Shown here in pieces: positions 18,403-45,796 of a stretch of DNA of 64,000 bases. Under the pieces are notes generated by a model. It was not told the DNA's origin, did no database searches, and worked only from the letters and a program-made list of their open reading frames with translations. How positions within the stretch are numbered: position 1 is the first letter of the stretch; every line of letters begins with the position of its first letter. Made by a program: the position numbers and the translations under genes. Origin of the DNA: Nocardia neocaledoniensis (GTDB taxonomy: Bacteria > Actinomycetota > Actinomycetes > Mycobacteriales > Mycobacteriaceae). The stretch covers positions 1 to 64,000 of the forward strand of contig NZ_JARWOJ010000077.1 in assembly GCF_029868625.1 (NCBI RefSeq), given 5' to 3'.

Positions 18403-18414
18403 TCGTCGACATTC

Positions 18415-29651: not shown

Positions 29652-29728
29652 AGGCTCAAGTGTGCCCGGTCGGCGAGCGACGCGCGCAGCTTGCCCGCCG
29701 ATACGGCTCTGACCTGCCGATCGCTCAT
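29648..29728 (-). CDS. 26-codon ORF overlapping both neighbours
   Basis: It encodes MSDRQVRAVSAGKLRASLADR followed by AHLSL. Its ATG overlaps the stop of the FHA-ABC exporter gene in ATGA, and its stop overlaps the GTG of the Hsp70-like gene in GTGA. The double 4-bp overlap is what a translationally coupled gene shows, and it leaves no untranslated gap. The peptide is basic and probably helical, with no membrane segment. It could be a real small protein or only a coupling relay. Confidence 0.55.
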   Translation of the reverse strand: MSDRQVRAVSAGKLRASLADRAHLSL

Positions 29729-32259
29729 GATTGCGTCTTCTTCAGGCGTAGCCGGCTCCAGGTGATGACCGCCAGGATCGCGGTGATCACGGTGAGCAGC
29801 ACGATGTTGAGAATCCAGATTCCCGGCTCGTGCACCCACAGCGGGTCCTCCTGCGCGCCGATGACCAGCTCGCGCAGGTCGACCGTCGCCGCGCCCGCGG
29901 CGTAACCCCAGCGCGACGGGAACAGGTACGACACCTGCTCGAGGCCGACCCGGTCGGTCACCGGGATCAGACCGCCCGCCATCACCAGCTGCACCATGAT
30001 CATCACCACGAGCATCGGCATCACCTGCTCGTTGGACTTGGCCAGGCTCGACATCAACAGGCCGAACACCACGCAGCAGACCGCGGTCATCGCGATGTCG
30101 AGGTAGAGCTCGACGCCGCCGGGCGGGATCAGCGCGCCCTCCGGCGGCGCCTTCTTGCCGAGGAACGTGATGCCGACCAGCACCGCCGACTGCAGGAACG
30201 CGGTCACGCTGAACACGACGATCTTGGCCATCAGATACGCCGAGGGCAGCAGGCCGACGGCGCGTTCGCGGTAGAAGATCGACCGCTCGCCGACCAGGTC
30301 GCGCACGGTGAGCGTGGCGCCCATGAAGCAGGCGCCGAGGATGAGCACCACGAGCAGCTGCTGGGCCTCACCGCCGCTGGACCGCGCGAACGAACCGTCC
30401 GGCTGGGCGATCAGCGGTCCCTCGGTGAAGCCGTCGCTGCCGGGCACCACCAGTGACAGCGCGCCGAGGATGAACGGCAGCACCACCAGGAACGCGAGAT
30501 AGCCGCGGTCGGCGAAGATCAACCGCAGCTGCCTGCGCGCCAGCGTGCTGAACTGGCGCATCCCGCTGGACTGCGGCGGCGCGCCCGCGTTGCCGCGTTG
30601 TAGCGGCTGGGGTGGCGGTGGCGGCGGCACGTAGGCTTGCCGGGATCGGTAGGCGGCGAAGGCCTGGTCCGGGTTGGCCGCGACCTTGGCGAAGATCTCG
30701 GCCCAGTCCGAGGTGCCGAGGGCCGCGCCGACACCACCGGGATGACCGGCGAAGGCGGTCTTACCGCCGGGGGCGAGCAGCACCACCTGGTCGCACATGT
30801 CGAGGCAGGCGACCGAGTGCGTCACCACGATCACCACGCGGCCCGCGTCGGCCAGTTCACGCAGCATCTGCATGACCTGCCGGTCCAGCGCCGGGTCGAG
30901 GCCCGAGGTCGGCTCGTCCAGGATCAGCAGCGAGGGACCGGTGAGCAGCTCCATCGCGACGGACGCGCGCTTGCGCTGGCCACCGGAGAGCCGGTCGACG
31001 CGGGTGTCGGCGTGCTGGGTGAGCGAGAGCTCCTGCAGCACACCGTCGATCACCTGCTGACGGTCGGCCTTGGTGGTGTCGGGCGGCAGCCGCAGCTCGG
31101 CGGCGAAGCCCAGGGCCTGGCGGACGGTGAGCTGACGGTGCAGTACGTCGTCCTGCGGGACCATGCCGATACGGGAGCGCAGCGCCTCGTACTCGGCGTG
31201 CAGGTTGCGGCCCTCGAAGGTGACCACACCGCCCGAGGGCTGGGTGTTGCCCGCGATGAGCTTCGACAGCGTCGACTTGCCCGCGCCGGAGGGGCCGATC
31301 AGCGCGGTGAGGGTGCCGCGGCCCGCCTGCATGTTGACGTCGACGAGCAGCTGCTTGTTGCCCTCGACGGTGAACCCGACGCCGTGCACCGAGAGCCCGA
31401 GTTCGGCGACCGGCTTCTGCCGATGCGCCAGCGCCCCCTGCGCGACGACGAAGTCGATGTTGCCGATCGTGACGATGTCGCGCTCACGCAGCACCGTGCG
31501 CTGCTGCCGATGACCGTTGACGAAGGTGCCGTTGGCCGACCCCAGGTCCTCGATGACCAGGCCCTCGGACGAAGACACCAGGCGCGCGTGCTTGCGCGAG
31601 GCCAGCGGATCGTTCACCACGATCTGGTTGTCGGAGGTACGGCCGATGCTCAGGCCGCCGGGCGGAATACGGTCACCGCGGGCCACCGGCTCGGTGGAGG
31701 CCGACTTGCGCACCGGTGGCAGCATCGAGGAATCCGCGCGCCGGGTCATGTTGATGTTGTCCTGCGGCGCCATCGGCTGCGGTTGCGACGGCAGCTGCGA
31801 GGTCGGCACGTACTGCGGTTGCTGGGGCGGATTCGGCCGGGCCTGCTGCGGCGGGAAAGGCTGTTGCGGGCGTTGCGGCGGCGGCCGGTGCTGGGCGGGC
31901 GGCTGGGACGGCTGGGCGAGCATCGTGGCCGCGTGGCGCGAGTTGGGCGCCGCCGGGACCAGGTGCAAGAGCGGCCCGCTGATGGCGTCCCCCAGACGCA
32001 CCTGCGTGGGCCGGTCGATCGAGACAGGCTGGCTCAGCCTGCGCGCGTCGACGAACACGCCGTTGGTGCTGCCGTTGTCGGCGAGCACCCAGGCGCCGTT
32101 CTGGAAGCGCAGAGTGGCGTGCACGCGAGAGACCAGCGGACTGTCCACGAACAGGGTGACCTCGGGCGCCCGGCCCATGGTGATCTGCTGGCTCGCTTCG
32201 AAGACTCGTTCGGTTCCATCATGGCGCACGGTGATGGTCTGCGCCCCCGGTGAAGACAT
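29725..32259 (-). CDS. Double-FHA ABC exporter (Rv1747-like)
   Basis: An 844-residue fusion. FHA 1 spans about residues 25-95 (MGRAPEVTLFVDSPLVSRVHA and NGSTNGVFVD), then a Pro/Gln-rich linker, and FHA 2 about 195-265 (IGRTSDNQIVVNDPLASRKHA and GSANGTFVNG). The ABC ATPase follows (GPSGAGKS near 323, LSGGQRKR near 424, LILDEPTSGLDP), then an ABC-2 type membrane domain with about six helices (590-840). In mycobacteria Rv1747 exports lipo-oligosaccharide and its FHA domains bind phosphothreonines made by PknF. Two kinases and another FHA protein lie within 15 kb here. Confidence 0.93.
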   Translation of the reverse strand: MSSPGAQTITVRHDGTERVFEASQQITMGRAPEVTLFVDSPLVSRVHATLRFQNGAWVLADNGSTNGVFVDARRLSQPVSIDRPTQVRLGDAISGPLLHLVPAAPNSRHAATMLAQPSQPPAQHRPPPQRPQQPFPPQQARPNPPQQPQYVPTSQLPSQPQPMAPQDNINMTRRADSSMLPPVRKSASTEPVARGDRIPPGGLSIGRTSDNQIVVNDPLASRKHARLVSSSEGLVIEDLGSANGTFVNGHRQQRTVLRERDIVTIGNIDFVVAQGALAHRQKPVAELGLSVHGVGFTVEGNKQLLVDVNMQAGRGTLTALIGPSGAGKSTLSKLIAGNTQPSGGVVTFEGRNLHAEYEALRSRIGMVPQDDVLHRQLTVRQALGFAAELRLPPDTTKADRQQVIDGVLQELSLTQHADTRVDRLSGGQRKRASVAMELLTGPSLLILDEPTSGLDPALDRQVMQMLRELADAGRVVIVVTHSVACLDMCDQVVLLAPGGKTAFAGHPGGVGAALGTSDWAEIFAKVAANPDQAFAAYRSRQAYVPPPPPPQPLQRGNAGAPPQSSGMRQFSTLARRQLRLIFADRGYLAFLVVLPFILGALSLVVPGSDGFTEGPLIAQPDGSFARSSGGEAQQLLVVLILGACFMGATLTVRDLVGERSIFYRERAVGLLPSAYLMAKIVVFSVTAFLQSAVLVGITFLGKKAPPEGALIPPGGVELYLDIAMTAVCCVVFGLLMSSLAKSNEQVMPMLVVMIMVQLVMAGGLIPVTDRVGLEQVSYLFPSRWGYAAGAATVDLRELVIGAQEDPLWVHEPGIWILNIVLLTVITAILAVITWSRLRLKKTQS

Positions 32260-32366
32260 GGAGCGGATACTATGCCATCGCCCGGACATCGGCGGTGCCC
32301 CCGAGACGGCTGAAAGCCCGATCCGGCACTCGACCTGCCCATGTTTCCGGCCGATCAGGGGGACTG

Positions 32367-33812
32367 ATGTCGAAAGGCCAAGTGTTCGTTGCGATCACCG
32401 CTGCGCTGGTCACACTGCTGAGTGTGGGCTGCACGCGGGCGATCGACGGCCACGGCGTCTCGATCTACGACGATCCGTTCAAGGTGGCCGGGCTGCCGAC
32501 CACCGGCGGACCGAACGGACCACGCCCCGGCGTCCCCGATACCACGCTGACCGCGTCCAACGGCGACGGCGGCGAGGTCGACACCCTGGCACTCAACGCG
32601 ATCGACGACATCCAGGCCTACTGGCAGGGCGTGTTCGGCACCGAGTTCCGCGGCGAGACCTTCGAGCCGGTCGAGAAGCTGATCTCCTGGAACGCCCGCG
32701 CCCCGCGCGGTCAGGCCGTGGAGTTCTGCAAGGAGACGACCTACCACCTGGTCAACGCGGCCTACTGCCGCAGCGACAACTCGATCGGCTGGGACCGCGC
32801 GATGCTGCTGCCCACCATGACCGAGACCTTCGGAAAGATGTCGGTGGTGATGGTGCTGGCCCACGAGTACGGCCACGCGATCCAGACCATGGCCAAACTG
32901 GTCACCAAGAAGACGCCGGTGCTGGTCAAGGAACAGCAGGCCGACTGCTTCGCAGGCGCGTTCATGCGCCACGTCGCCGAGGGCAAGTCGAAGCACTTCA
33001 CGATCAACACCTCCGACGGCCTGAATTCGGTGCTGGCCGCGACCGTTTCGATCCGCGACTCCGACCCCGACGATCCCGAGAGCGTGCACGGCTCGGCGTT
33101 CGAGCGCGTCACCGCCGTGCAGATCGGCTTCACCGACGGCCCGCGCGGCTGCAAGGGCATCGATGACGAGGAGATCGACCAGCGTCGCGGCAACCTCCCG
33201 CAGAGCTTCTCCGGCGACCAGGGCCGCGGCGAATACCCGATCTCGAGGGACAATCTGGTCGAGCTGAGCAAGGCGCTGCAGGCCATCCTGCCGGTCGAGG
33301 ACAGCCCGACCTACGACTACTCCGGCGCCAGGATCGACTGCGCGGACGGCGCCGCCACCGAACCGGTCACCTACTGCCCGGCCAAGAACGTCATCGCCAC
33401 CGACGTGCCCGGCCTGGCCGAGCGCGGCGCGGTCGACAACGACGACGACGGACCGCTGCCGGTGAAGGTCAGCGGCGACTACAACGGCTACGTCGTGTTC
33501 ATCTCCCGCTACACCCTCGCGGTGCAGCGCGGTCACGGCCAGCAGCTGACCGGCGCGAAGACCGGCCTGCGCGCGGCCTGCCTGTCCGGTGTGGTCACCG
33601 GCAAGCTGGCCGAGCCCGGCCGACCGGTCAGCCAGGGCGACATCCAGCTCTCCGCCGGCGACCTCGACGAGGCCGTCTCCGGGCTGCTCACCGACGGCCT
33701 GGCTGCCAGCGACACCGAGGGCAACACGGTGCCCAGCGGATTCTCCCGGGTCGACGCGTTCCGCGCGGGGGTGCTCAACGGCGAGACCACCTGCCTGTCG
33801 CGCTACAGCTGA
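32367..33812 (+). CDS. Exported lipoprotein of the neutral zinc metallopeptidase family
   Basis: A 481-residue protein with signal peptide and lipobox LLSVGC. A domain about residues 70-350 resembles the YpfJ-type neutral zinc metallopeptidase family: MVLAHEYGHAIQ supplies the HExxH-type zinc site (HEYGH), and KEQQADCFAGAFM gives the downstream third ligand region. Paired Cys residues (FCKET, AYCRS, RIDCADG, TYCPA) suggest disulphides outside the membrane. It is divergent from the FHA-ABC exporter with a 107-bp shared upstream region, so joint control is possible. Its substrate is unknown. Confidence 0.88.
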   Translation: MSKGQVFVAITAALVTLLSVGCTRAIDGHGVSIYDDPFKVAGLPTTGGPNGPRPGVPDTTLTASNGDGGEVDTLALNAIDDIQAYWQGVFGTEFRGETFEPVEKLISWNARAPRGQAVEFCKETTYHLVNAAYCRSDNSIGWDRAMLLPTMTETFGKMSVVMVLAHEYGHAIQTMAKLVTKKTPVLVKEQQADCFAGAFMRHVAEGKSKHFTINTSDGLNSVLAATVSIRDSDPDDPESVHGSAFERVTAVQIGFTDGPRGCKGIDDEEIDQRRGNLPQSFSGDQGRGEYPISRDNLVELSKALQAILPVEDSPTYDYSGARIDCADGAATEPVTYCPAKNVIATDVPGLAERGAVDNDDDGPLPVKVSGDYNGYVVFISRYTLAVQRGHGQQLTGAKTGLRAACLSGVVTGKLAEPGRPVSQGDIQLSAGDLDEAVSGLLTDGLAASDTEGNTVPSGFSRVDAFRAGVLNGETTCLSRYS

Positions 33813-33928: not shown

Positions 33929-35269
33929 TCAGCCGAACGGGGGTGGTGCGGCGGGCTCGTAGCGCAGGACCCGGTTGCCGATCATGATCTCGGTGCCGGG
34001 GATCAGCACCAGCGGCTGGTTCGGGGTGAGCCTGATCCAGTCGCGATAGCCGGGCAGCCGGCTGCGCGTGCCGTTGGTCGACCCGCGATCGAGCAGCTGC
34101 ACATCCCAATTCACCAGGTGCACTTCGGCATGCGCGCGGGACATGCCGCCCGAGGTGTCGTCCACCCGCAGCGGGATGAGGCCGCGCTGGGCGGCCTCGG
34201 AGTGCTCCGGGTCGCGGCCGATCACCGCGTCGGCGGCGAGCAGGTAGGTCATGCCGTCGTCGAGGACGAGCATTCCCAGCGGCGGCCGCACGACCTCGCT
34301 CAGCGCCTGGGTCTGGTCGACGGGCATGCCGCAGACCGTGCAGAACGCCGAGCGCGGATCGCTGGGATGCGCACGCGCGCACTTGAATCCCATCACCTTG
34401 ACCGTGAGCACCGTCGCCCGCGCGGTCGCCTCGAGGCGTCGCTGCAGGTCGGGATCGGGTTCTGGAGCCGGATTGGTGCCACCCGCGCGAGTCTCGGCGT
34501 TGTGCGGATCGGCCTGCGCGACCGCGTGCGGGTCGACCGAGGGATGGCCGGGGCCGGTGGCCCCACTGGCCGCGTCCAGCATCGAGGTCGCCGGTTGCAT
34601 CCCGGTGGCGGGCTGCTCGACGGGACGCGAATCCGCTTGCGGCGGACGCGGTTCCCGATCGATGCGCGCGGTGGGCGGCGGCGGCCTGCGGACCTCACCC
34701 GCCGGCTCGGCGGTGCGCACCCACGAGCGCGAGCCGTTGGACCAGATCACCGCCCCACCCGCCTGCGCGATGCCCTCGACCAGCCAGCCGACGCCGCGTT
34801 CAGGTGGCAGATCGGGGATGCGGCCCTTGGCGTCGTCGACGAACAGCGCCACCGCCCTGGCCGGTTCGGAAGCGACCCGGTCGACGGTGAAGGCGGCATC
34901 GCTGCCCCGGTAGTACTCGTTGGCGCCGTCACCGGCCAGCACGGCGGTGACCGCGCCGTGCAGGAAGATCGCCACGCCGCCGTTCTCGGCCGCCGAGAGC
35001 ACCCCGAAATCGATCGGGACGCCGGGCGAGATCTGCTCGGCGTACTTCATCAGCCAGCGTGTCGCCTCGCGGGCGACCACGGAGCCCGGCCCGCCGGGTT
35101 GATCCTCGGCGGCGGCGCGCACCAATTCGGCCAGCGATTCCAGGGCGACGGCCGCGGTGTCCTCGGCGGTCGGGCGACCGGGCCCCCGGTGCGCCACCAC
35201 GATCACGGCGCCCGCGACCCGCGCGACCGCATGACTTCCTGGCACGACTTCGACCTGCCGATCCTTCAC
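33929..35269 (-). CDS. FHA-domain protein with central zinc-ribbon-like segment
   Basis: A 446-residue cytosolic protein. The N-terminal 190 residues form an uncharacterised domain (VARVAGAVIVVAHRG and VAIFLHGAVTAVLAG) that resembles PP2C-like or other T7SS-region domains only loosely. A Pro-rich linker follows, then CARAHPSDPRSAFCTVCG, a possible zinc-binding element. A C-terminal FHA domain (IGRDPEHSEAA, GGMSRAHAEVHL and DRGSTNGT) ends the protein. The FHA domain should bind phosphothreonine, making it a candidate target of the neighbouring kinases. Confidence 0.85.
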   Translation of the reverse strand: MKDRQVEVVPGSHAVARVAGAVIVVAHRGPGRPTAEDTAAVALESLAELVRAAAEDQPGGPGSVVAREATRWLMKYAEQISPGVPIDFGVLSAAENGGVAIFLHGAVTAVLAGDGANEYYRGSDAAFTVDRVASEPARAVALFVDDAKGRIPDLPPERGVGWLVEGIAQAGGAVIWSNGSRSWVRTAEPAGEVRRPPPPTARIDREPRPPQADSRPVEQPATGMQPATSMLDAASGATGPGHPSVDPHAVAQADPHNAETRAGGTNPAPEPDPDLQRRLEATARATVLTVKVMGFKCARAHPSDPRSAFCTVCGMPVDQTQALSEVVRPPLGMLVLDDGMTYLLAADAVIGRDPEHSEAAQRGLIPLRVDDTSGGMSRAHAEVHLVNWDVQLLDRGSTNGTRSRLPGYRDWIRLTPNQPLVLIPGTEIMIGNRVLRYEPAAPPPFG

Positions 35270-35412: not shown

Positions 35413-36618
35413 ATGAGCAATTCGACCAAGATCCGGATCGCGTCCGCGCTCTGTTGCGCCGCGCTGACCACTGTTCTCACCGGGTGTGCCGTGAGCGGCA
35501 CCCCGGTCGCCGGTGAACCCGATGTGCGCGGCCTGGAAACCGGCACCTACGCCACCGACCGGCACAGCTACGACGACACCGCCGGCGACGAGGGCGCGCT
35601 GGTCGAGGGGATGCGGATGTCGGGCGCGGTCGTGCCCGCCGTGCGGATCGACCCGTCGCTGTCGCACGGTCGCGGTGGCACCGTCATCCCCGATGTGGAG
35701 CGGGCACTCGATTTCGTCGCCAATGTGTCCAAACCCGTTCTGGAGAACCGGAAGTTCGTCACCGGCTACGCCGCGCTCGGCTCCGACAAGCCCGATCCGG
35801 TCGGCCAGACCCGCCCCTCCGACGACACGACGGCGGTCACCACCGCCCTGCTCCGCTTCCCCGACGCCACCGCGGCCACCCTCGCCGCGCGTGAACTCGA
35901 GGACGTCGACCTCGCGGTCTCGCCGGAGAACCGCAAGCTCGCCTCCACCAAATACCCTGAGGCGTATGTGCATTGGCGTCCGAACGTGCCGACGATCGGC
36001 GCCTTCCTCGCGCACAAGGAATTCGTGATCTCGCTGTTCATCCAGCGCCCACGCGCCGACTCCGCCGACCTCACCGCCTGGGTCGACAAGACCCTCGCCG
36101 CCGAACTCACCCAGCTCGCGACCTTCACCGCCACGCCCCTCGGGGAACTCGAGGAACTTCCCGTCGACGGCGAACGCATGCTGGCCCGAGCCGTCGTCGA
36201 GGATCGCGCCGGCCTCGACCCGGATCAGCACTCCTTCGCGGTCTACAGCCCCACGCACCTGGTGAACAACGCCGACGATCAGGCCGCGCGCCAGCGGCTC
36301 ATCGAGGCCGCCGGTGCCGAGCACATCGCCCTGGTCGACGGCGGATCGGTCACCCGGGTGCGCGACCTGGCCGGCGCGCAGACCCTGATGACCGGCCTCA
36401 TCGACAGTTCCGGCCACTACGACGCCCTGCCAGCGCCCACCGACATCCCCGGCGCCAAATGTCTGCAGCTCAACGACGACGGCGACTCCGAGGAGGAGTA
36501 CAAGTACCGCTGCTACGTCCCCTACAAGCGCTACCTCGGCATCGTCAGCTCCGACCAGGAGCCCGACGTCCGCCAGAAGATCTCCGCCCAGTACGCCCTG
36601 CTGGCGAACAGTCTGTGA
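35413..36618 (+). CDS. Exported lipoprotein, type B of a local family (copy B1; DUF7373-like)
   Basis: A 401-residue lipoprotein with lipobox VLTGC. It belongs to a family with four further members here (36,694, 37,890, 40,939 and 42,171). Shared landmarks are RTL/GLETG-Y near the N-terminus, an HWRP motif (YVHWRPNVPTIG), and a C-terminal pair of Cys (AKCLQ and YRCYVPYKRY) before QKISAQYALLANS. Type B copies carry HWRP followed by a hydrophobic strand. Function unknown; such proteins are very numerous in Nocardia. The ATG at 35413 is preceded by GAGGGG. Confidence 0.85.
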   Translation: MSNSTKIRIASALCCAALTTVLTGCAVSGTPVAGEPDVRGLETGTYATDRHSYDDTAGDEGALVEGMRMSGAVVPAVRIDPSLSHGRGGTVIPDVERALDFVANVSKPVLENRKFVTGYAALGSDKPDPVGQTRPSDDTTAVTTALLRFPDATAATLAARELEDVDLAVSPENRKLASTKYPEAYVHWRPNVPTIGAFLAHKEFVISLFIQRPRADSADLTAWVDKTLAAELTQLATFTATPLGELEELPVDGERMLARAVVEDRAGLDPDQHSFAVYSPTHLVNNADDQAARQRLIEAAGAEHIALVDGGSVTRVRDLAGAQTLMTGLIDSSGHYDALPAPTDIPGAKCLQLNDDGDSEEEYKYRCYVPYKRYLGIVSSDQEPDVRQKISAQYALLANSL

Positions 36619-36693
36619 CCCGTCGAGCCCGCCCGTGTGTCGGCGTGGTGTCGTAGGATTCCGCCGACCATCGATTCGGGGAGGGTGATCGTC

Positions 36694-37893
36694 GTGCGGA
36701 CCCGGGGAATACCGAGAAGGGTGTGCGTCGCGCTGGCGGCCACACTCCTCACCGTGGCCGCGTGCGGCACCGGCGACGAGTCAGCCGAGGCCACCGACCC
36801 GCCGGTCGATCTGGCCTCGCTCGATGTCGGCGGCTACGCCACCCAGCCGCGCGAGGTCGGCGTGGTCGCCAATCTCGATCAGGGCCGGTTCATCGAGGCC
36901 GAGCGGCTCGGCGATTTCGTGCCGACCCCGGCCGATATCGACCCGCGCTTCGTGCACACCAATCCCTCGATCGCGACGGTGTTCCTCGACGCGGAGGCCT
37001 CGCTCGGCAAGATCATGGCCGTCGACCGGTTCGCCGAGACCGCGCCGGATTTCATCGGCGGCTTCGTGAGCTCCGCCGAGACCGAGCGCCAGAACAAGGG
37101 CATCGACATGGTGAACGCGGTCATGATCTTCCCCGACGCGCAGAAGGCCGCCGCGGCGGCCGTCGCCCTCGAGCGCGCCGATTTCGAGTACGCGCCGAAC
37201 AACCAGCCGATCGAGATCCCCGGCTACCCCGCGGCGAAGGCGCATTGGCAGCCCGATCAGCAGTCGATCGGTTCCTGGTTCGCCACCGGCCATCTCGTCA
37301 TCTACACCTGGCTCTACGACTACCTCAAGATCTGGCTGGAGAAGGTGGACAAGCAGGCGCTGCTCGACCTGACGCGCAAGAGCCTCGACACCATCGTCCC
37401 CTCGGTACAGAAGTTCGTCCCCACCCCGAGCGACAAGCTGACCTCGCTGCAACGCGACCGCGACGGCATGCTCGGGCGCACCGCGCCGCGACCACGCGAG
37501 GACTCCTGGATCAATCCGCCGGGCGTCTACGCCGGGCGGACCGCGCGCCACTTCACCTCCGACCCGGTCGCCATGGCGAAGATCATCGACAGCGCCGGCG
37601 TGGATCTGTACGCCAGCGACGGTTCCGACGTCTACCGGGCTCGCGACATCGCGGGCGCTCAGGCGGTTCGCGACGAGATCGGCGGCCTGACCAAGAAGTT
37701 CACCCGCTCCGAGGCGCCGAAGAATCTGCCCTTCGCCCAGTGCAAGGAGTACATCGGCAGGGAGCGGATGGCGGTGCGGTTCTACTGCGCGGTGTCCTAC
37801 GACCGCTACGCCGCCTATGTCTGGTCGAACCAGCTCCTCGACGCCCAGCAGCGGATCTCCGCCCAGTACGCGTTGCTGGTGAACGCCGCATGA
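36694..37893 (+). CDS. Exported lipoprotein, type A (copy A1)
   Basis: A 399-residue lipoprotein with lipobox TVAAC. I chose the GTG at 36694 because GGGGAGGG lies 8 nt upstream. It has the family frame (LDVGGYATQPR, then QCKEYIG, RFYCAVSYDRY and QRISAQYALLV) but an HWQP variant and a DRDGMLGRT segment shared with copy A2 at 40,939. It is followed by type B copy B2 with an ATGA overlap, and the pair is followed by a kinase; the same A-B-kinase order repeats downstream. Confidence 0.84.
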   Translation: MRTRGIPRRVCVALAATLLTVAACGTGDESAEATDPPVDLASLDVGGYATQPREVGVVANLDQGRFIEAERLGDFVPTPADIDPRFVHTNPSIATVFLDAEASLGKIMAVDRFAETAPDFIGGFVSSAETERQNKGIDMVNAVMIFPDAQKAAAAAVALERADFEYAPNNQPIEIPGYPAAKAHWQPDQQSIGSWFATGHLVIYTWLYDYLKIWLEKVDKQALLDLTRKSLDTIVPSVQKFVPTPSDKLTSLQRDRDGMLGRTAPRPREDSWINPPGVYAGRTARHFTSDPVAMAKIIDSAGVDLYASDGSDVYRARDIAGAQAVRDEIGGLTKKFTRSEAPKNLPFAQCKEYIGRERMAVRFYCAVSYDRYAAYVWSNQLLDAQQRISAQYALLVNAA

Positions 37894-39122
37894 GGCGCCG
37901 CGGCACCGCACTGCTCGCGGCCTCGTTGATCACCGTGCTCACCGGCTGCGGTTCGGTGTCCGGCACCGCGACGCCGGCCGAGGTCGATATCCGCACCCTC
38001 GACGTCGGCCCGTATCCGACCGAACCGTACGACGCGCACGACGATCCGAAACTGCCCGACTTCTACGAGATGTACAAGGTCGCCGGGATGCGGATCGCCG
38101 ACTACGTCGTCAACTCCCACGACATCGATCCGCAGATGATCTACGGCAAACGCGCGTCCACCGTGTCCGCCGGGCTGCTCCCGCAGGCCCTCGGCAACGA
38201 CAGCGCGCTCGAACCCGTCGCGAAGAAGCACAAGCTGCTCTACGGGTTCGAATCCAGCGGAGCCTCCGCCGACGCCACGATCAACAGCCCCAGCACGTGG
38301 CCGAGCAAGAAGGACACCACCAAGTTCACCGCGACCACGATGGTCCTGCAGTTCCCCGACGCCGCGGCCGCGACCGCGGCGGCCAAGGAATTCCACGACG
38401 TCGATCTCGCCGCCCAGGAGGGTCGCAACCAGCCCGTCTCGCTGCCGAAACATCCTGCGGCACTGTCGCATTGGCGTCCCGACGCACCCTTCCTGCGTAC
38501 GGTCATGCCGCACGGTCCGTACGTCATCGCCTTCCTGCTCTCGGTCCCGACACCGGATCTGGCGGGCCTCACCACCATGGCCGAGACGGCGTACACCAAG
38601 CAGATCGAGTCACTCGCCAGGACGACGCCCCTGACCGACGAAGAGGTCATGTCGCTGCCCTGGGATCCGGACCGACTGGTCGCACGCACCCTCAATCCCG
38701 AGGAACTGTCGAACCCGGACGGTTCGGGAACCCTGCTCGTCACCGGCAAGCACGGTGTCCTGCACTACTCCGGCGACGCGCTCCCGAGCGATCGGCAATA
38801 CGTCGACCAGCAGCTCACCGCCATGAAGGCCGAGCAGGTCGCGCTCTCGTGGGGTTCGATCGGCATCCGCACGCCGGACCCCGGCACCGCCAAGCGCGCG
38901 GTCGCCGACAAGCTGTTCCCCTGGCGGACCAAGGCCGAGGCCGCCGCGCCGCCCAACGTGCCCGACGCGGTCTGCGTGGAGAACCAGTCGCTGGCCACGA
39001 AAACCCGCTTCAGCTGCATGGTGGCCTACAACCAGTACGTCGGGATCGTCGGCGGCCACCAGCTTCTCGACGCCCACCAGCGCGCGGCCGCGCAGTACGC
39101 CCTCTTCGCCAACACCCGTTGA
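37890..39122 (+). CDS. Exported lipoprotein, type B (copy B2)
   Basis: A 410-residue lipoprotein with lipobox VLTGC and the type B landmarks: RTLDVGPYPTEPYD, LSHWRPDAPFLRTV, a C-terminal Cys pair (AVCVENQ and FSCMVAYNQY) and QRAAAQYALFANT. The ATG overlaps the A1 stop (ATGA). The end lies 84 bp before the kinase gene. It is most similar in landmarks to copies B1 and B3. Confidence 0.85.
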   Translation: MRRRGTALLAASLITVLTGCGSVSGTATPAEVDIRTLDVGPYPTEPYDAHDDPKLPDFYEMYKVAGMRIADYVVNSHDIDPQMIYGKRASTVSAGLLPQALGNDSALEPVAKKHKLLYGFESSGASADATINSPSTWPSKKDTTKFTATTMVLQFPDAAAATAAAKEFHDVDLAAQEGRNQPVSLPKHPAALSHWRPDAPFLRTVMPHGPYVIAFLLSVPTPDLAGLTTMAETAYTKQIESLARTTPLTDEEVMSLPWDPDRLVARTLNPEELSNPDGSGTLLVTGKHGVLHYSGDALPSDRQYVDQQLTAMKAEQVALSWGSIGIRTPDPGTAKRAVADKLFPWRTKAEAAAPPNVPDAVCVENQSLATKTRFSCMVAYNQYVGIVGGHQLLDAHQRAAAQYALFANTR

Positions 39123-39206
39123 GCCGATGACTGCGCACTGTCGCGGCGGCCAGTATGCTCCGCCCGAGAAGCTGAAGCACGGTAACGACTCAGGAGATCG
39201 TAGGAC

Positions 39207-40739
39207 ATGGCGATGAGCCCAGGGACCATCGTCGGCGGGTACCGCATCATCCGCAAGCTGGGCGCCGGCGGCATGGGTTCGGTCTATCTCGCCAGCCACC
39301 CGAGCCTGCCGAGGACCGACGCGCTCAAGATCCTCAGCGGCGAACTCAGCCGCGATCCCGAGTTCCGCGCCCGCTTCGAACGGGAGGCCAATCTCGCGGC
39401 CGGCCTCGACCACCCGAACATCGTCTCGGTCTACAACCGCGGCGAGGAGAACGGTCAGCTCTGGATCGCCATGCAGTTCGTCGAGGGCACCGATGCCGCC
39501 GCCGAACTCGCCCGCGACCCGCAGGCGATGACCCCACTGCGCGCGTTGCGCATCGTCACCGAGGTCGGCAAGGGCCTGGACTTCGCGCACCACCGCGGCC
39601 TGCTGCACCGCGATGTGAAGCCGGCGAACTTCCTGCTGTCGAACACCTACGGCGACGAGGAACGGGTGCTGCTCACCGACTTCGGCGTCGCCAAGTCGAC
39701 CGACGACGCCTCCGAACTCACCCAGACCGGCAGCTTCCTCGCGACCATCGCCTACGCCCCGCCCGAGCAGCTCTCCGGCGGCCAGCTCGACCACCGCGCC
39801 GACATCTACAGCCTGGCCTGCTCGTTCTACAAGCTGCTCACCGGCCAGAACCCTTATCCCGCAACGCAACCAGCCATGGTCATGATGGGCCACCTGCACG
39901 AGCCGCCGCCCCGCCCGACCAGCGTGCGCCCCGGCCTGCCGCCCGCCCTCGACCAGGTCTTCGCCCGCGCGATGGCGAAGAATCCGCACGAGCGCTTCCT
40001 GTCCTGCCGCGAATTCACCGACGCCGCGACGGCCGCTCTCGTTCCCGGATCGAATCCCACGGGCCACCACACGTCACCGACCTACCCGATCCAGGCGCCG
40101 ACCCAGTGGGCGTCCCAGGCACCCACCGTGTCCGAGCGGACCCTCCCGCCCGCCCCGAAGTCGTCGAAGAAGAAGCTCGCGCTCAGCGTCGGCGCCATGG
40201 TCGCGGCCATCGCGGTCGCGGTGGGCGTCGGCGTCTGGGCGGCCAGTGGGGACAGCGGACCCGGCGTCGCCGGCTCGACGACTCCGCCCTCACAGAGCGC
40301 ACTGAGCCCCATCGAACAGGCCCGCCAGGACAACCCCGCCTTCACCGGCAAGACCATCCTGATGGTCGACGTCGACGCCGAGAACAAGGTCGCCACCTAC
40401 CTCGGCGGCACCCTGCAGACCCAATTCCTCCAGGATCTCGGCTTCGTATACAACTTCAACTACACCAAGTCCGGCGACGAGCCCTCCCCCCGTCCGGTGG
40501 CCAGCACCACCGCCCGCCTCGACGTCCCCGACGACAGCTACATCCTCGTCGTCCGCAGCGACGAAAAGGCAGGCGGCGGCGGCCTCCTCGGCCTCCCGTA
40601 CCAGATCACCGGCTCCCGAGCCACCGTCATCCCCGTCGACGACCCCATCACCGTCACCTCCATCCGCACCTGGACCACCAACTCCGAACAAACCCTCCTC
40701 TCCCGCATGCTCCCGATCCTCAAGAGCCGGGTGAAGTAG
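39207..40739 (+). CDS. Membrane Ser/Thr protein kinase with unassigned extracytoplasmic domain (K1)
   Basis: A 510-residue PknB-type kinase. The kinase domain (1-270) has GAGGMGSVYLA, lysine 41 in DALKIL, HRDVKPANF (134-142) and DFGVAKS (158-164), all intact. A Pro-rich juxtamembrane linker follows, then one membrane helix (about 330-350) and an external domain of about 150 residues. That domain contains NPAFTGKTILMVDV, LQTQFLQDLGF, SDEKAGGGGLLGLP and TVTSIRTWTTNSEQ. It is not a PASTA or NHL sensor and I do not recognise it. Copy K2 at 43,484 shares both halves. Likely targets are the nearby FHA proteins. Confidence 0.93.
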   Translation: MAMSPGTIVGGYRIIRKLGAGGMGSVYLASHPSLPRTDALKILSGELSRDPEFRARFEREANLAAGLDHPNIVSVYNRGEENGQLWIAMQFVEGTDAAAELARDPQAMTPLRALRIVTEVGKGLDFAHHRGLLHRDVKPANFLLSNTYGDEERVLLTDFGVAKSTDDASELTQTGSFLATIAYAPPEQLSGGQLDHRADIYSLACSFYKLLTGQNPYPATQPAMVMMGHLHEPPPRPTSVRPGLPPALDQVFARAMAKNPHERFLSCREFTDAATAALVPGSNPTGHHTSPTYPIQAPTQWASQAPTVSERTLPPAPKSSKKKLALSVGAMVAAIAVAVGVGVWAASGDSGPGVAGSTTPPSQSALSPIEQARQDNPAFTGKTILMVDVDAENKVATYLGGTLQTQFLQDLGFVYNFNYTKSGDEPSPRPVASTTARLDVPDDSYILVVRSDEKAGGGGLLGLPYQITGSRATVIPVDDPITVTSIRTWTTNSEQTLLSRMLPILKSRVK

Positions 40740-40803
40740 GTGAGGTAGGACACACTCCGAACGGTTCCCGGCCGCGAAAAGAATTCTCACGCGGGCACCG
40801 TGG

Positions 40804-40821
40804 GCTCACGGCACAGTGAGC
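40804..40821. promoter_or_regulatory. 18-bp inverted repeat upstream of the second lipoprotein-kinase unit
   Basis: GCTCAC at 40,804-40,809 and GTGAGC at 40,816-40,821 are perfect complements separated by six bases, the layout of a dimeric-regulator operator. A second inverted repeat (GCGACCGC 40,892-40,899 and GCGGTCGC 40,910-40,917) lies closer to the start codon at 40,939. Both fall in the 199-bp gap that must hold the promoter of copy 2. There is no direct evidence of binding. Confidence 0.4.
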
Positions 40822-40938
40822 AGACGGATCGGTGTGAGTGCTATCTTCTCTCCAGCGCTCGGGTATGTAGCTGTGGAGGCTCCGGGCCGCTGCGACCGCT
40901 GAGCACGACGCGGTCGCCTCACCACGGAGGGGAATCAC

Positions 40939-42171
40939 ATGAGGAGAACGAGTTCGGCGCTGCTCGCTGCCGGTCTCGCTGTGGCGATGGTGGCGACCGC
41001 TGGATGCGGGTCCGACAGTGGGGAGTCGTCGGCCGAGCAGACAATCGACCTGAGCAAACTCGACGTGGGCAATCTCCCCGTCGAGCCGAAGGTCTATGGA
41101 AAACCGACCAACATGGATATGGCGGGCATGGTCGAGGCCATGCGCATCGGTAATGCGATGCCGCTGCCCATGGAGATCGAGCCCGAGGCGAAATACTCCG
41201 CGTCGGCCATGGGCAGCGCCGTCCGCATTTTCGTCGACTTCGAGTCCGCCGCGATCAAGTCGCGAATGAGCGCCGACGCAGCGAAATTGAATGAACGAGC
41301 GCCGGGATTCATCACAGGATTCGTCACGACGGCGCGTTCCAACGCGGAACCGGCCCTCGCCTATGAACTCGACAACATCGCGATGCTGTTCAACACTGAA
41401 CAGGATGCCGCGAAGGCCGCCGAAGCCTTCGCCGCCGAAGAGGCGGCCACCGATCCGGACGCGTACTTCCCGCAGGTCGGAACGGGTGTCGGCCACCTCA
41501 ATGACGTCCGTGCGCAGATGAGCCCGAAGTGGCCGGGCATGATCAAGTCCTGGAAGCCCGTCGGCCGGTTCGTGATCTTCACCTACGTGTACGACAGCGT
41601 CATGGGCACCTTGAAGACCGCGGACGAACAGAAGCTGATAGCACGGGCGCAGAAGAGCATCAACAAGATCGCGCCGGCGCTGCAGAAATTCACCCCGACG
41701 CCGGTCGACAAAATGATGGACCTCGACGTCGATCCCGACGGCATGCTCGGCCGTGCGATGCACACGATCTCTCTCGACTCGAACCAACGCGGAATTCCCG
41801 GAGTTTACGATCGCAACGGCGGTCTCCAACTGACCGGTGATACCGAAGACATGTCGAAATTGTTCGAGGAGAGCGGGGTCGACCGTGTCTCCTGGCAGGG
41901 AAACTTCGTCTTCCGCGCCAAGGACCCCGCCGGCGCGGCGAAGATCGTGGACTACTTCGGCGATTCCTCGAAGTTCCTGCGTGACGCCCCGGCACCGGCG
42001 AACCTGCCCACCGCGAAATGCCTCGAATACATCGGCCCCGACAAGTTCGCGACGAAGTACTACTGCAGCGTCGCCTACGACCGCTATGCCACTCAGGTCG
42101 CCGCGACGCAGCTGATCGATGTGCATCAGCGGGTCGCGGCCCAGTACACGATTCTCGCGAAGGCCAAGTGA
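40939..42171 (+). CDS. Exported lipoprotein, type A (copy A2)
   Basis: A 410-residue lipoprotein with lipobox ATAGC. Landmarks shared with A1 are SKLDVGNLPVEP, PDGMLGRAM, IPGVYDRN (compare PPGVYAGR), CLEYIGPDKF, YYCSVAYDRYA and HQRVAAQYTIL. It is richer in Met than A1 and has drifted considerably, so the duplication is not recent. GGAGGGG precedes the ATG. Function unknown. Confidence 0.84.
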   Translation: MRRTSSALLAAGLAVAMVATAGCGSDSGESSAEQTIDLSKLDVGNLPVEPKVYGKPTNMDMAGMVEAMRIGNAMPLPMEIEPEAKYSASAMGSAVRIFVDFESAAIKSRMSADAAKLNERAPGFITGFVTTARSNAEPALAYELDNIAMLFNTEQDAAKAAEAFAAEEAATDPDAYFPQVGTGVGHLNDVRAQMSPKWPGMIKSWKPVGRFVIFTYVYDSVMGTLKTADEQKLIARAQKSINKIAPALQKFTPTPVDKMMDLDVDPDGMLGRAMHTISLDSNQRGIPGVYDRNGGLQLTGDTEDMSKLFEESGVDRVSWQGNFVFRAKDPAGAAKIVDYFGDSSKFLRDAPAPANLPTAKCLEYIGPDKFATKYYCSVAYDRYATQVAATQLIDVHQRVAAQYTILAKAK

Positions 42172-43421
42172 TGCGGAACAAATTTCAAGGATCGTCGATG
42201 CCTTCGACACGAACCCGTGTGGTGAGCTGCTTGGCCATCGCGGTGACCGCTGCGCTGACCGCCTCCGGATGCGGCACCACGAACGGCACCGCGGCACCCG
42301 GCGAACTGGATGTTCGCACTCTGGATGTGGGCTCGTACGCGGCGGCCACCGCGCCGTTGGATATGCGGTACGACTACCACAACGATCTATCCGGCGCGAT
42401 GAATCTCGCCATTATGCGCCTGTCCGACCACGTCGTCACAGGCGTCGATATCGACCCACTGATCAAATTCGGTACCGGGTCCATCGCCATCACGGACGCC
42501 GAGAAGGCCACCGATGTGCTGGCGAACGTCAACAAGCCTGTGCTGGAACGAAATCGGATGCAGTTCGGTTTCGCCAGCAGCTCGACCGACAAACAGGACG
42601 ACAAGTCGACGAAGGCGGTGCCCGGCTCCACCTTCACCACCGTCACGGTGATGCAGTTCCCCGACGACGAGACGGCGAAGCGCGCCGCCACCGAGATCGA
42701 GGAAACCGACTTCGCCGTCGCCGCCGACAAGAACGAGCGCGTACCGCTGTCCAAGTATCCTGCGGCGCATACGCATTGGCGTCCCGGTGTCGCTACGATC
42801 GGGTCCACACTGGCGTACGGCCGCTATGTCATCAACCTCTATCTCGGTACGCCGGAGGCGAATCTCAGCGCGTTGACCGCTCTGACGGAGAAGGTCTACG
42901 CGGCACAGCTGCCGCTGTTGGACCAGATCCCCGCGCTGAGTCCGACCGAGATGCTGTTCCTGCCGGACGATCCGGACCAGATGCTGCGCCGCACACTCAA
43001 TCCCGACGGCTTCGGGTCACCGAGCATCGGACAGCAGGCAGCGCTGAATGTCCGGGGCTTCCTCCACAAGGTGGGCCCGCAGAGCCATTGGAAGACCGTG
43101 CTGACCGACGCGGGCGTCGACCGGTTCTCCCTGTCCATCGCGATGTCCAGTGCGACCATGCTGTTCCGCGCCCGCGACGAAGACTCGGCAGGCAAGCTCA
43201 TCACACAGATTCTCGCGCGCGTCTACCCGGCTCCCGCGGCTCCGCCGGCGGCGGTACCGGACGCACTGTGCGGTGAAGATCCCGACGACGACTACAAGAC
43301 CAAGCGTTTCCGGTGCGCGGTGACCTATCGCCAGTACGTGGCGACTGTCGAAAGCGACCAGCTGGCCGACGCGCATCAGCGCGCCGCGGCACAGTACGCG
43401 CTGCTCGCGAACAGCCAGTAG
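42171..43421 (+). CDS. Exported lipoprotein, type B (copy B3)
   Basis: A 416-residue lipoprotein with lipobox TASGC. Type B landmarks are RTLDVGSYAAA, THWRPGVATIGS, LCGEDPDDDYKTKRFRCAVTY (Cys pair) and HQRAAAQYALLANS. The ATG at 42171 shares one base with the A2 stop (TGATG); an ATG at 42198 (MPSTRTRVVSCLA) would give a more typical signal peptide. It ends 62 bp before kinase K2. Confidence 0.84.
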   Translation: MRNKFQGSSMPSTRTRVVSCLAIAVTAALTASGCGTTNGTAAPGELDVRTLDVGSYAAATAPLDMRYDYHNDLSGAMNLAIMRLSDHVVTGVDIDPLIKFGTGSIAITDAEKATDVLANVNKPVLERNRMQFGFASSSTDKQDDKSTKAVPGSTFTTVTVMQFPDDETAKRAATEIEETDFAVAADKNERVPLSKYPAAHTHWRPGVATIGSTLAYGRYVINLYLGTPEANLSALTALTEKVYAAQLPLLDQIPALSPTEMLFLPDDPDQMLRRTLNPDGFGSPSIGQQAALNVRGFLHKVGPQSHWKTVLTDAGVDRFSLSIAMSSATMLFRARDEDSAGKLITQILARVYPAPAAPPAAVPDALCGEDPDDDYKTKRFRCAVTYRQYVATVESDQLADAHQRAAAQYALLANSQ

Positions 43422-43483
43422 TACGACTCGGACCACCGCGTCAACGTGAACATCCCTTCGAAGCGCGACAGGAGACGATCAGG

Positions 43484-45079
43484 GTGGCGATAACCCCTGG
43501 GACTGTCATCGGCGGTTACCGCATCGAGCGAATCCTGGGTGCCGGCGGCATGGGATCGGTCTATCTGGCCAAACATCCCAGCCTGCCGCGCATGGACGCG
43601 CTCAAGATCCTCAGTCCGGAGCTCTCCCGCGACGCGGAGTTCCGTGCCAGGTTCGAGCGCGAAGCCAATCTCGCCGCGGGCCTGGATCATCCGAACATCG
43701 TCTCGGTGTACAACCGCGGCGAGGAGCACGGCCAGCTCTGGATCGCGATGCAGTACATCGAGGGTACGGACGCGTCGGCGGAGATGACGCGGGACCCCCA
43801 TTCGATGAATCCCCTTCGGGCCCTGCGGATTGTCACCGAGGTCGGTAAGGGCCTTGACTACGCTCACCGAAAGGGCTTGCTGCATCGGGACGTGAAGCCC
43901 GCCAACTTTCTGCTTTCCTCCGCTGTCGCCGGTGAAGACGAGCGGGTCCTGCTGACGGACTTCGGTGTCGCCAAATCCAATGACGACGCGTCCGAACTCA
44001 CCCAGACCGGAAGCTTCCTGGCGACGATCGCTTACGCGCCACCGGAGCAATTGGCAGGCGGCTCCCTGGACCACCGCGCCGACATCTACAGCCTGGCCTG
44101 CTCGTTCTTCAAACTGCTGACCGGCCGGAATCCCTACCCGGCCACCCAGCCCGCGATGGTCATGATGGGGCACCTGCACGAGCCCCCACCGGCCGCCACG
44201 TCGGTCAATCCTGGTCTGCCACCGGCCATCGACGGGGTCTTCGCCCGGGCATTGGCGAAGAATCCTGCGGAGCGGTTCGCATCCTGCCGGGAATTCACCG
44301 ACGCTGCAGCCGGTGTCCTGATGCCCGGCCACAACCCGGTGGCGACGAATACTTCGCCCACCTACCCGGTTCAGGTCTTCGATCAGGGGCCGCACAACCG
44401 GTTCAGTCCGATCTCCACCACGGGACCACGCACGGCGGTGACTCCGTTGCCGATGGACCCGGCGACGGGGCCCGGGGCCCGGCCCGCCGCCAAGAGCCGA
44501 TCACGTCTGCTCATCACGGGTGCGGCCGTGGCCGTCGTCGCGGTGGCGGCCGCCGTCGGGATCTTCGCTATGTCCGGCGGCGATGAGCCGGCGGGCGGAA
44601 CGGCCGGTTCCACCGTCGCCCAGAAGCCCATCGACCGCGCCCGCACCGCGAACCCAGGGTTCGCCGGGAAGTCCGTCGCCATGGTCGATATCACCGACGG
44701 CACCAGCCTGGACCCGAACATCTCGGTGTATCTGTCGCCGACCCTGCAAACGACCTTCCTGAGCGATCTGGGTCTGGCGTACAACCCGATGTTCACCAAG
44801 GCCGCGGACGAACCGTCACCGCGCGCGGTGTCGAAGGACGATCGATACACGATCTTCTCGAAGTTCAAGAGCAACAACTACATCATCGCCGTCCGAACCG
44901 ACGAAAAGGCCGGCGGCGGAGGACATCTCGGCATGCCTGGTTCGATCGCCTCCTCCGAGGCGACAGTCATCGTCGTCGACGATCCGGCGACGGTGACAGC
45001 GATCAGGAACTGGACCGACAAGTCCGAACAGCAATTGGTCGACCACTTGGTCCCACTGCTCAGCAAGCAGATCAAATAG
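43484..45079 (+). CDS. Membrane Ser/Thr protein kinase with unassigned extracytoplasmic domain (K2)
   Basis: A 531-residue close paralogue of K1. The kinase domain is nearly the same (GAGGMGSVYLAKH, DALKILSPELSRD, HRDVKPANF and DFGVAKSNDD). The linker differs, then a membrane helix (LLITGAAVAVVAVAAAVGIF) and the same external domain follow (NPGFAGKSVAMVDI, LQTTFLSDLGL, TDEKAGGGGHLGMP and TVTAIRNWTDKSEQ). I chose the GTG at 43484 (MAITPGTVIGGYRIERILG); a longer reading lacks similarity to K1. It converges on esxT with a shared 20-bp-stem terminator. Confidence 0.93.
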   Translation: MAITPGTVIGGYRIERILGAGGMGSVYLAKHPSLPRMDALKILSPELSRDAEFRARFEREANLAAGLDHPNIVSVYNRGEEHGQLWIAMQYIEGTDASAEMTRDPHSMNPLRALRIVTEVGKGLDYAHRKGLLHRDVKPANFLLSSAVAGEDERVLLTDFGVAKSNDDASELTQTGSFLATIAYAPPEQLAGGSLDHRADIYSLACSFFKLLTGRNPYPATQPAMVMMGHLHEPPPAATSVNPGLPPAIDGVFARALAKNPAERFASCREFTDAAAGVLMPGHNPVATNTSPTYPVQVFDQGPHNRFSPISTTGPRTAVTPLPMDPATGPGARPAAKSRSRLLITGAAVAVVAVAAAVGIFAMSGGDEPAGGTAGSTVAQKPIDRARTANPGFAGKSVAMVDITDGTSLDPNISVYLSPTLQTTFLSDLGLAYNPMFTKAADEPSPRAVSKDDRYTIFSKFKSNNYIIAVRTDEKAGGGGHLGMPGSIASSEATVIVVDDPATVTAIRNWTDKSEQQLVDHLVPLLSKQIK

Positions 45080-45146: not shown

Positions 45147-45434
45147 TCAGACGAATTTGCCGGCCAGCCACTTGTCGGTGTCGTGCAGTTCGGAGTTACC
45201 GGTCTGAACCAGCTTCGCCGCCTCCTGCAGAGTGGTGTTCAGCTGAGTGGACTGGGTGTTCCACTCGGCCTGCATCTGGGTGAAGGACTCGTGGGCGCTA
45301 CCACCCCACCGGTTGGCCACTTCGGCAACCTTGTTGTGGAAAGCCTGGAGCTTGTCAGCCAGCATGTTGGCCGTGTTGATCATGTCCTGAGCACCGAGAT
45401 CGACGGAGTCCCGGTTAGACGCAATTTCCACCAT
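45147..45434 (-). CDS. esxT: WXG100 protein EsxT-like
   Basis: A 95-residue WXG100 protein with the turn NRWGGSAHES between two helices, expected to pair with EsxU as the ESX-4 heterodimeric substrate. The C-terminal end (HDTDKWLAGKFV) lacks a clear YxxxD/E signal, which is instead present in EsxU. The position between the terminator and esxU matches Rv3444c in the mycobacterial ESX-4 locus. Confidence 0.93.
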   Translation of the reverse strand: MVEIASNRDSVDLGAQDMINTANMLADKLQAFHNKVAEVANRWGGSAHESFTQMQAEWNTQSTQLNTTLQEAAKLVQTGNSELHDTDKWLAGKFV

Positions 45435-45478
45435 GACAGTGAATCTCCTCTAGTGAAGGTTTGTAATGAGCCGAATGG

Positions 45479-45796
45479 TCAGATGGCGGGCAGGTCGAGC
45501 TCAGCCATCTTGGCGTCGACCTGGCCCTTGAAGAGCGCGTCCTGCTCGGAGTAGCTGTTCGTCGCCTCCATCAGCTTCTGCGAGGTCTCGAGGAGCTTGT
45601 CGTTCAGCTTCTCGGCGCGCGCGGCGTAGGAGTCCATCAGCTGGTCGAAAGCGACCTGCGCGCCGCCCTTCCAGGTCTCGGTGGTCTGCATCTTGCCGGC
45701 CCAGATCTTCTTCACGAGACCCTCGATCTCGTTGTAGGAAGACTCCGCTTCCTTGGCAAAGGTCTGGAGATCGGCAACATCTGCGTGGAGAGTCAT
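45479..45796 (-). CDS. esxU: WXG100 protein EsxU-like
   Basis: A 105-residue WXG100 protein with the turn ETWKGGAQVAF and the C-terminal signal YSEQD, fitting the YxxxD/E T7SS export motif. It lies 44 bp before esxT on the same strand, corresponding to Rv3445c. Together they should form the secreted heterodimer recognised by EccC. Confidence 0.93.
   Translation of the reverse strand: MTLHADVADLQTFAKEAESSYNEIEGLVKKIWAGKMQTTETWKGGAQVAFDQLMDSYAARAEKLNDKLLETSQKLMEATNSYSEQDALFKGQVDAKMAELDLPAI

What the first reader, a model, noticed from the sequence alone, without database searches (positions are those of the whole stretch)
35413..45079. Tandem duplication of a lipoprotein-lipoprotein-kinase unit beside ESX-4
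The order is B1, then A1-B2-K1 (36,694-40,739), then A2-B3-K2 (40,939-45,079). Each unit is about 4.1 kb and keeps ATGA or TGATG overlaps between A and B. The kinase domains are very similar, whereas the lipoproteins have drifted. Constant order of two exported lipoproteins with a transmembrane kinase suggests that the lipoproteins feed signals to the kinase's external domain.
Basis: partly seen in the sequence, partly recalled or inferred. Interest (0 to 1): 0.75.

Follow-up and report, generated by a model that had tools for sequence, protein, structure and literature searches.

The report
Sensor lipoprotein-kinase cassettes beside ESX-4
Next to a protein-export machine, Nocardia bacteria keep swappable sets of surface lipoproteins paired with a membrane protein kinase, and some relatives have the two parts fused into one protein, which suggests that the lipoproteins are the outer part of a sensor.

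Summary
The gene order is as reported, but its reading changes. All five lipoproteins belong to one family, DUF7373; A and B are old subclasses of it. The two units are old paralogues, not a recent local duplication: K2 groups with kinases of other species, not with K1. In nine Nocardia genomes 57 of 59 DUF7373 genes lie in a same-strand array with a Ser/Thr kinase. At ESX-4 two alternative cassettes exist, A-B-K(I) and P/Q/R-K(II); kinase type fits lipoprotein type in 37 of 37, and two unseen kinases were predicted correctly. Mycobacteria have single-chain kinase-TM-DUF7373 fusions, so DUF7373 can itself be a kinase ectodomain. Its modelled N-terminal half best matches the sensor of M. tuberculosis PknH. 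The K1 ectodomain is one lobe of a siderophore-type binding protein; related mycobacterial kinases keep both lobes, and some of their units directly follow eccD of a type VII locus. Best reading: the lipoproteins are the external sensing part of a receptor kinase tied to type VII loci. Binding, ligand and output are untested; a correlated-divergence test was inconclusive. New variant of a known kind.

The parts
35413..36618 (+). B1, DUF7373 lipoprotein of the alpha subclass (beside the FHA gene)
   Evidence: Pfam PF24088 and PF24092; lipobox LTGC in the printed N-terminus; tree
36694..37893 (+). A1, DUF7373 lipoprotein, subclass A
   Evidence: tree; structure model
37890..39122 (+). B2, DUF7373 lipoprotein, subclass B, ATGA overlap with A1
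39207..40739 (+). K1, transmembrane Ser/Thr kinase, type I
   Evidence: Pkinase, TM by hydropathy, tree
40296..40736 (+). K1 ectodomain: one lobe of a class III binding-protein fold
   Evidence: model and fold matches, profile match to mycobacterial kinases
40939..42171 (+). A2, DUF7373 lipoprotein, subclass A
42168..43421 (+). B3, DUF7373 lipoprotein, subclass B (start 42168 GTG or 42171 ATG)
43484..45079 (+). K2, transmembrane Ser/Thr kinase, type I, of an older separate lineage than K1
44603..45076 (+). K2 ectodomain, same single-lobe family
   Evidence: alignment with the K1 ectodomain
29725..32289 (-). FHA-ABC transporter, Rv1747-like (name recalled)
   Evidence: NCBIfam ABC and FhaB-type FHA matches
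32364..33812 (+). Zn-peptidase-like protein of the locus
   Evidence: PF04228; homologues beside mycobacterial L-K units
33929..35269 (-). protein with an FHA-like domain
   Evidence: PF00498 just below its cut-off, E 0.0012
45147..45796 (-). two WXG100 genes (esxT, esxU by position, names recalled)
   Evidence: PF06013
47545..58680 (.). ESX-4 core: eccC (-), eccD (+), mycosin (+), eccB (-), eccE (+)

Best explanation
This is a receptor-kinase signalling module whose outer part is split off into lipoproteins. Each A-B pair of DUF7373 lipoproteins, held on the outer face of the membrane, works with the ectodomain of its own kinase; a signal bound or carried by the lipoproteins changes the kinase's pairing or activity, and the kinase phosphorylates partners inside, most likely the FHA proteins of the same locus (FHA protein, FHA-ABC transporter) and perhaps the ESX-4 machine. 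Shown: gene linkage, fit of lipoprotein type and kinase type, natural kinase-DUF7373 fusions, PknH-sensor-like fold of the model, single-lobe binding-protein ectodomain, neighbourhood of type VII loci. Inferred: physical contact, nature of the signal, targets, any control of secretion.
For: Linkage 9 of 10 (own genome) and 48 of 49 (eight Nocardia genomes of 1-2 contigs). A kinase after B is type I in 24 of 24, after P, Q or R type II in 13 of 13; the other 3 of 40 are type I; two unseen kinases predicted as type II and found so. A is followed by B in 32 of 34; in the other two the data end or the next copy is broken. Five single-ORF fusions in four mycobacterial genomes, DUF7373 parts 47-69% identical. 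DUF7373 N-half: top PDB match the PknH ectodomain, Z 12.7, rmsd 3.0, 155 aligned. L-L-K sets on named plasmids of M. marinum, M. branderi and M. intracellulare (two). FHA and Zn-peptidase genes recur beside L-K-ESX loci in both genera.
Against: No direct interaction evidence. DUF7373 also occurs without kinases outside Nocardia. The lipoprotein-ectodomain correlation over 15 units (0.64 and 0.51) vanishes among first units only (0.05 and 0.11, n 11), so it may reflect only the old split of the units. The fusions are not beside type VII genes. One own-genome copy (L034) and one in G248 (L077) stand without a kinase. TiME, a non-kinase protein, matches the fold as well as PknH (Z 12.2).
Confidence: 0.68

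Rival explanations
1. The DUF7373 lipoproteins are lipid or envelope-precursor carriers (like TiME), and the neighbouring kinase regulates them or their pathway rather than sensing through them.
For: TiME matches the model as well as PknH does (Z 12.2 against 12.7, a tie). Lipoproteins without kinases exist in other genera.
Against: The kinase-TM-DUF7373 fusions put the domain where a kinase sensor sits. Lipoprotein type follows kinase type. No transporter of the MmpL kind was looked for or seen in the annotated neighbours.
Confidence: 0.15
2. The lipoproteins are accessory or protective factors of the type VII locus (chaperones, immunity-like proteins) that multiply with it, and the kinases are neighbours by chance of operon building.
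For: Copy number at ESX-4 varies from 1 to 8; arrays lie beside ESX-4 in all eight Nocardia genomes of 1-2 contigs.
Against: Four own-genome copies sit in kinase arrays on other contigs (C119, C335 twice, C187); at ESX-4 the lipoprotein type follows the kinase type; fusions are far from type VII genes.
Confidence: 0.1
3. A recent local tandem duplication of one A-B-K unit, of little functional meaning.
For: Repeat spacing of about 4.28 kb and 85% identical kinase domains.
Against: K2 groups with kinases of L066 and L101, which have no K1; A1-A2 and B2-B3 are only 38% identical. High kinase-domain identity may come from constraint or gene conversion.
Confidence: 0.04

Closest known systems
GlnH-GlnX-PknG of mycobacteria (PMC6069109; abstract and passages seen)
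   Same: A lipoprotein outside the membrane is linked to a Ser/Thr kinase; genes in one operon.
   Different: There the lipoprotein is a complete amino-acid binding protein, the membrane protein is separate and the kinase lacks a TM; here the lipoproteins are DUF7373, several per kinase, and the kinase itself spans the membrane.
PknH of M. tuberculosis (sensor structure 4esq as fold match; no paper on it read)
   Same: Sensor fold like the N-terminal half of DUF7373; receptor Ser/Thr kinase.
   Different: In PknH the sensor is part of the kinase chain; DUF7373 has a further C-terminal domain, no PF14032 match, and is mostly a free lipoprotein.
Kinases with a binding-protein domain in one chain, MSMEG_1200/StpK7 (passages of PMC6069109 and PMC13355554 seen)
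   Same: Kinase plus binding-protein ectodomain; Peripla_BP_2 in mycobacterial L-K kinases.
   Different: The Nocardia ESX-4 kinases have only the C-terminal lobe, with 150-178 residues after the TM in 40 of 40, and come with lipoproteins.
PknF-Rv1747 (PMC3908365, start of abstract in the listing) and PknQ-MupFHA (PMC4238996, passages seen)
   Same: A kinase gene near an FHA protein or FHA-ABC transporter that it acts on.
   Different: No lipoprotein is named in PMC4238996 (0 occurrences of the word); the other paper was not read.

Membership tests
DUF7373 (PF24088 + PF24092) | N- and C-terminal domain matches over the curated cut-off | tested here: met
   all five lipoproteins
Hanks-type receptor Ser/Thr kinase | kinase domain with catalytic motifs, one TM, outer domain | tested here: met
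   Pkinase matches, HRDVKPAN and DFG in the printed sequences, TM by hydropathy; activity not tested
PASTA kinase PknB/Stk1 | score over the NF033483 cut-off, PASTA repeats outside | tested here: not met
   285 and 281 bits against 450, aligned to the first 354-356 of 563 positions only
Class III substrate-binding protein (Peripla_BP_2) | two lobes | tested here: not met
   the K1 ectodomain aligns to residues 188-338 of PiaA and to columns 196-338 of 338 of the mycobacterial ectodomains
Class III substrate-binding protein (Peripla_BP_2) | common descent of the C-terminal lobe | tested here: met
   Z 13.2; hhalign E 1.8e-28 to ectodomains in which Pfam finds Peripla_BP_2; Pfam itself finds none in K1 or K2
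PknH-like extracellular domain (PF14032) | Pfam match of the lipoproteins | tested here: not met
   no PF14032 match at E 0.01 for any of the five
PknH-like sensor fold | fold similarity over most of the domain | tested here: met
   4esq Z 12.7, 155 of 194 residues aligned
GlnH-GlnX-PknG type system | complete binding-protein lipoprotein, separate membrane protein, kinase without TM | tested here: not met
   the kinase has a TM, the lipoproteins are DUF7373
Lipoprotein-sensing receptor kinase | physical contact of lipoprotein and ectodomain | not testable with these tools
   no complex prediction on offer; correlation test inconclusive
ESX-4 locus | EccB, EccC, EccD, mycosin and WXG100 genes on the rplM/rpsI side | tested here: met
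   that this set and place define ESX-4 is recalled

The most novel reading that the evidence does not exclude
A receptor kinase that kept only half of a ligand-binding ectodomain and took on interchangeable PknH-like lipoproteins as co-receptors, carried as swappable cassettes that report envelope conditions to type VII secretion loci (ESX-4 in Nocardia, chromosomal ESX loci and conjugative plasmids in Mycobacterium).
Probability: 0.33. Interest if true: 0.85.

Novelty: new variant of a known kind. Interest (0 to 1): 0.72.

Why it matters
What activates bacterial protein kinases is called an outstanding question in the abstract of PMC6069109. A lipoprotein family that goes with kinase type, occurs fused to a kinase in relatives and resembles a known kinase sensor gives named protein pairs to test. 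It is also a lead on how type VII loci could be linked to outside signals, in two genera and on plasmids. The library search for DUF7373 found no paper; the searches for Nocardia kinase-lipoprotein pairs, ESX-4 in Nocardia, pRAW with kinase, and type VII with FHA, kinase and lipoprotein listed 1, 7, 2 and 2 papers, none of whose titles or abstract starts describe this. Most subscription papers are not in that library.

Tried and rejected
Recent tandem duplication: rejected by the kinase tree. Two unrelated lipoprotein kinds: rejected by Pfam. Ectodomain-lipoprotein co-evolution: positive over 15 of 23 units (8 units of seven loci dropped as near-identical) and over all 23, but gone among first units only (n 11), where the kinase domain followed A instead (0.50); kept as inconclusive. 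PASTA kinase: not met. A link of the fusions to type VII loci: the nearest EccD on the same contig is about 50 kb away in one of five, farther or on other contigs in the rest. An alignment-based scan of named genomes failed; one protein was used instead and gave 8 loci. Rows dropped: L094 (same contig as L037) from the trees, copies with under 250 aligned residues (for example in L041 and L097), the overlap of L072 with L071, and the window kinase 18242-19750 from the ESX-4 counts.

Full report
What is there. ESX-4 follows: two WXG100 genes, eccC, eccD, a mycosin, eccB, eccE. The other side has rplM, rpsI and a PGM_PMM gene, glmM by place; in M. tuberculosis these are direct neighbours of ESX-4, so this stretch looks like an insert (recalled). 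All five lipoproteins match DUF7373, N- and C-terminal halves; their printed N-termini carry lipoboxes. A simple motif test found one in 163 of 189 DUF7373 frames of the window, L037-L044 and L065-L104 (ESX-4 and other places, doubles not removed). The kinases have a kinase domain, one TM and a short ectodomain that matches no Pfam family over its cut-off.

Own genome and relatives. This genome has 10 DUF7373 genes, 9 of them in same-strand arrays with a Ser/Thr kinase. The family is in 59 of 59 genomes searched in the genus, 2 to 16 copies, in 65 of 148 of genus g2, in 23 of 200 of the order, 22 over the cut-off, and in 7 of 396 of the phylum, 6 over the cut-off. Genus g2 is Mycobacterium: contig C2 of G358 has the length and match position of a named M. 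branderi plasmid. In eight Nocardia genomes of one or two contigs, taken with all their copies, 48 of 49 DUF7373 genes lie in kinase arrays, and all eight have such an array beside ESX-4 genes. In the mycobacterial sample, which was not random, 27 of 41 do, fusions included; in g5 0 of 3 fetched and in g8 0 of 5 fetched. Of six plasmid stretches opened, four (M. marinum, M. branderi, two M. intracellulare) have L-L-K and two (Rhodococcus, Prescottella equi) have a copy without an annotated kinase within 6 kb.

Cassettes. A tree of 176 lipoproteins (FastTree) gives subclasses alpha (B1), A and B, and three others, P, Q and R. A tree of 49 kinases gives two ESX-4 groups, type I (27 rows, support 81/92) and type II (13 rows, 100/99). 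Along the loci A is followed by B in 32 of 34, a kinase after B is type I in 24 of 24, and a kinase after P, Q or R is type II in 13 of 13; the other three of 40 are type I and follow alpha or another kinase. Two arrays that ran off the fetched DNA (L090, L092) held only type-II lipoproteins beside alpha; I noted that a type-II kinase should follow, fetched the next stretch, and the best matches of both kinases were type II. Three further arrays named in that note (L040, L042, L043) were not followed. Cassette type changes at least 3 times over 28 loci on the alpha tree, by exchange or by differing losses. Relatives differ: L037 has A-B-K twice like the window, L038 and L039 have A-B-K and then Q-R-P-K(II), L066 and L101 have A-B-A-B with a K2-like kinase only.

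Fusions. Five single reading frames in four mycobacterial genomes join kinase, TM and DUF7373. The DUF7373 parts are 47-69% identical, the kinase parts 66-88%, so the fusion is kept over much divergence; it may go back to one event. One of the five (L108) has only part of the kinase in that frame.

Structure. The A1 model (pLDDT 89) matches first the extracellular domain of M. tuberculosis PknH (Foldseek E 1.5e-4; Z 12.7, rmsd 3.0, 155 aligned), then TiME (Z 12.2, a tie); the C-terminal half was barely tested. The K1 ectodomain model (pLDDT 92.8) matches one lobe of siderophore-binding proteins (PiaA, Z 13.2, rmsd 2.7, 137 aligned). Of seven mycobacterial kinases beside DUF7373 that were scanned, six carry Peripla_BP_2 (L058; L128, L129, L117, L118, L113) and one (L054) a PknH_C domain. 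A profile of window-type ectodomains aligns with the C-terminal 143 columns of the mycobacterial type (probability 99.8, E 1.8e-28). So the Nocardia kinases have one lobe, with 150-178 residues outside in 40 of 40. That the other lobe was lost, rather than never gained, is inference.

Type VII neighbourhood in Mycobacterium. In L055 and L058, from chromosome-sized contigs, the lipoprotein frame starts 30 and 16 nt after eccD, which Pfam confirms; L058 and L117 also have an FHA gene and a Zn-peptidase gene beside the unit, as in the window. Of 13 genomes with an L-K array and a usable contig, 8 have EccD within 20 kb: G178, G116, G166 and G291 (picked because EccD had been seen), G382, G364, G263 and G340; 5 do not: G187, G043, G358, G265 and G367. 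Three more (G123, G318, G266) had contigs of 8-46 kb without EccD. Of 13 solitary mycobacterial loci, 7 lie 22-29 kb from an EccD (G130, G034, G154, G116, G166, G178, G312), 5 do not (G304, G284, G265, G367 on C16, G199 on the short contig C69) and one genome (G259) was not searched, so distance alone is weak evidence. On pRAW the unit is about 21 kb from eccB.

How it most likely works. DUF7373 lipoproteins act as the external part of a receptor kinase, with FHA proteins of the locus as likely partners inside. Precedents: a binding-protein lipoprotein linked to PknG (PMC6069109, abstract and passages), PknF with Rv1747 (PMC3908365, start of abstract), PknQ with MupFHA (PMC4238996, passages). 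Contact, signal and output are untested here.

Limits. 

Noticed in passing
window 28323-29651 (-): A 442-residue reading frame with no Pfam or NCBIfam match whose homologues sit between rplM and the FHA-ABC gene in many Nocardia ESX-4 loci.
   Followed up: partly
window 54711-55463 (+): An ion-channel-like gene (PF07885) lies inside the ESX-4 cluster, between the mycosin frame and eccB.
   Followed up: no
L092, L096, L099, L100: An Rv3446c-like type VII gene sits right after the alpha lipoprotein instead of (or besides) its usual place next to eccC.
   Followed up: no
L077 and L078 (G248), L104 (G228), L084 (G021): The locus is split: in G248 alpha stays with the FHA-ABC, peptidase and FHA genes, while the other lipoproteins and the kinase stay with ESX-4; L104 shows the first half, L084 the second. 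It looks like two sub-modules joined at one place.
   Followed up: partly
L033 (own contig C187), L067: K-L-K-K arrays; in L033 the kinases are of another subfamily with weak DUF3558-like outer parts, below the cut-off (L067 not scanned), a second kinase kind tied to DUF7373.
   Followed up: partly
L059-L062 (genus g8, another family): One DUF7373 gene lies near rplM/rpsI/glmM with no kinase found; in the frames of L059, L061 and L062 I recognised no ESX gene by eye. This may be an older place of the family.
   Followed up: partly
L047 1533-3666 (-): A solitary mycobacterial DUF7373 gene lies near fhaA/fhaB-like frames (recognised from memory).
   Followed up: no
L117 9173-10357 (-), L118 5352-6086 (+): Separate PknH_C proteins (PF14032) lie beside mycobacterial L-K units, so free PknH-type sensors gather there too.
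   Followed up: no
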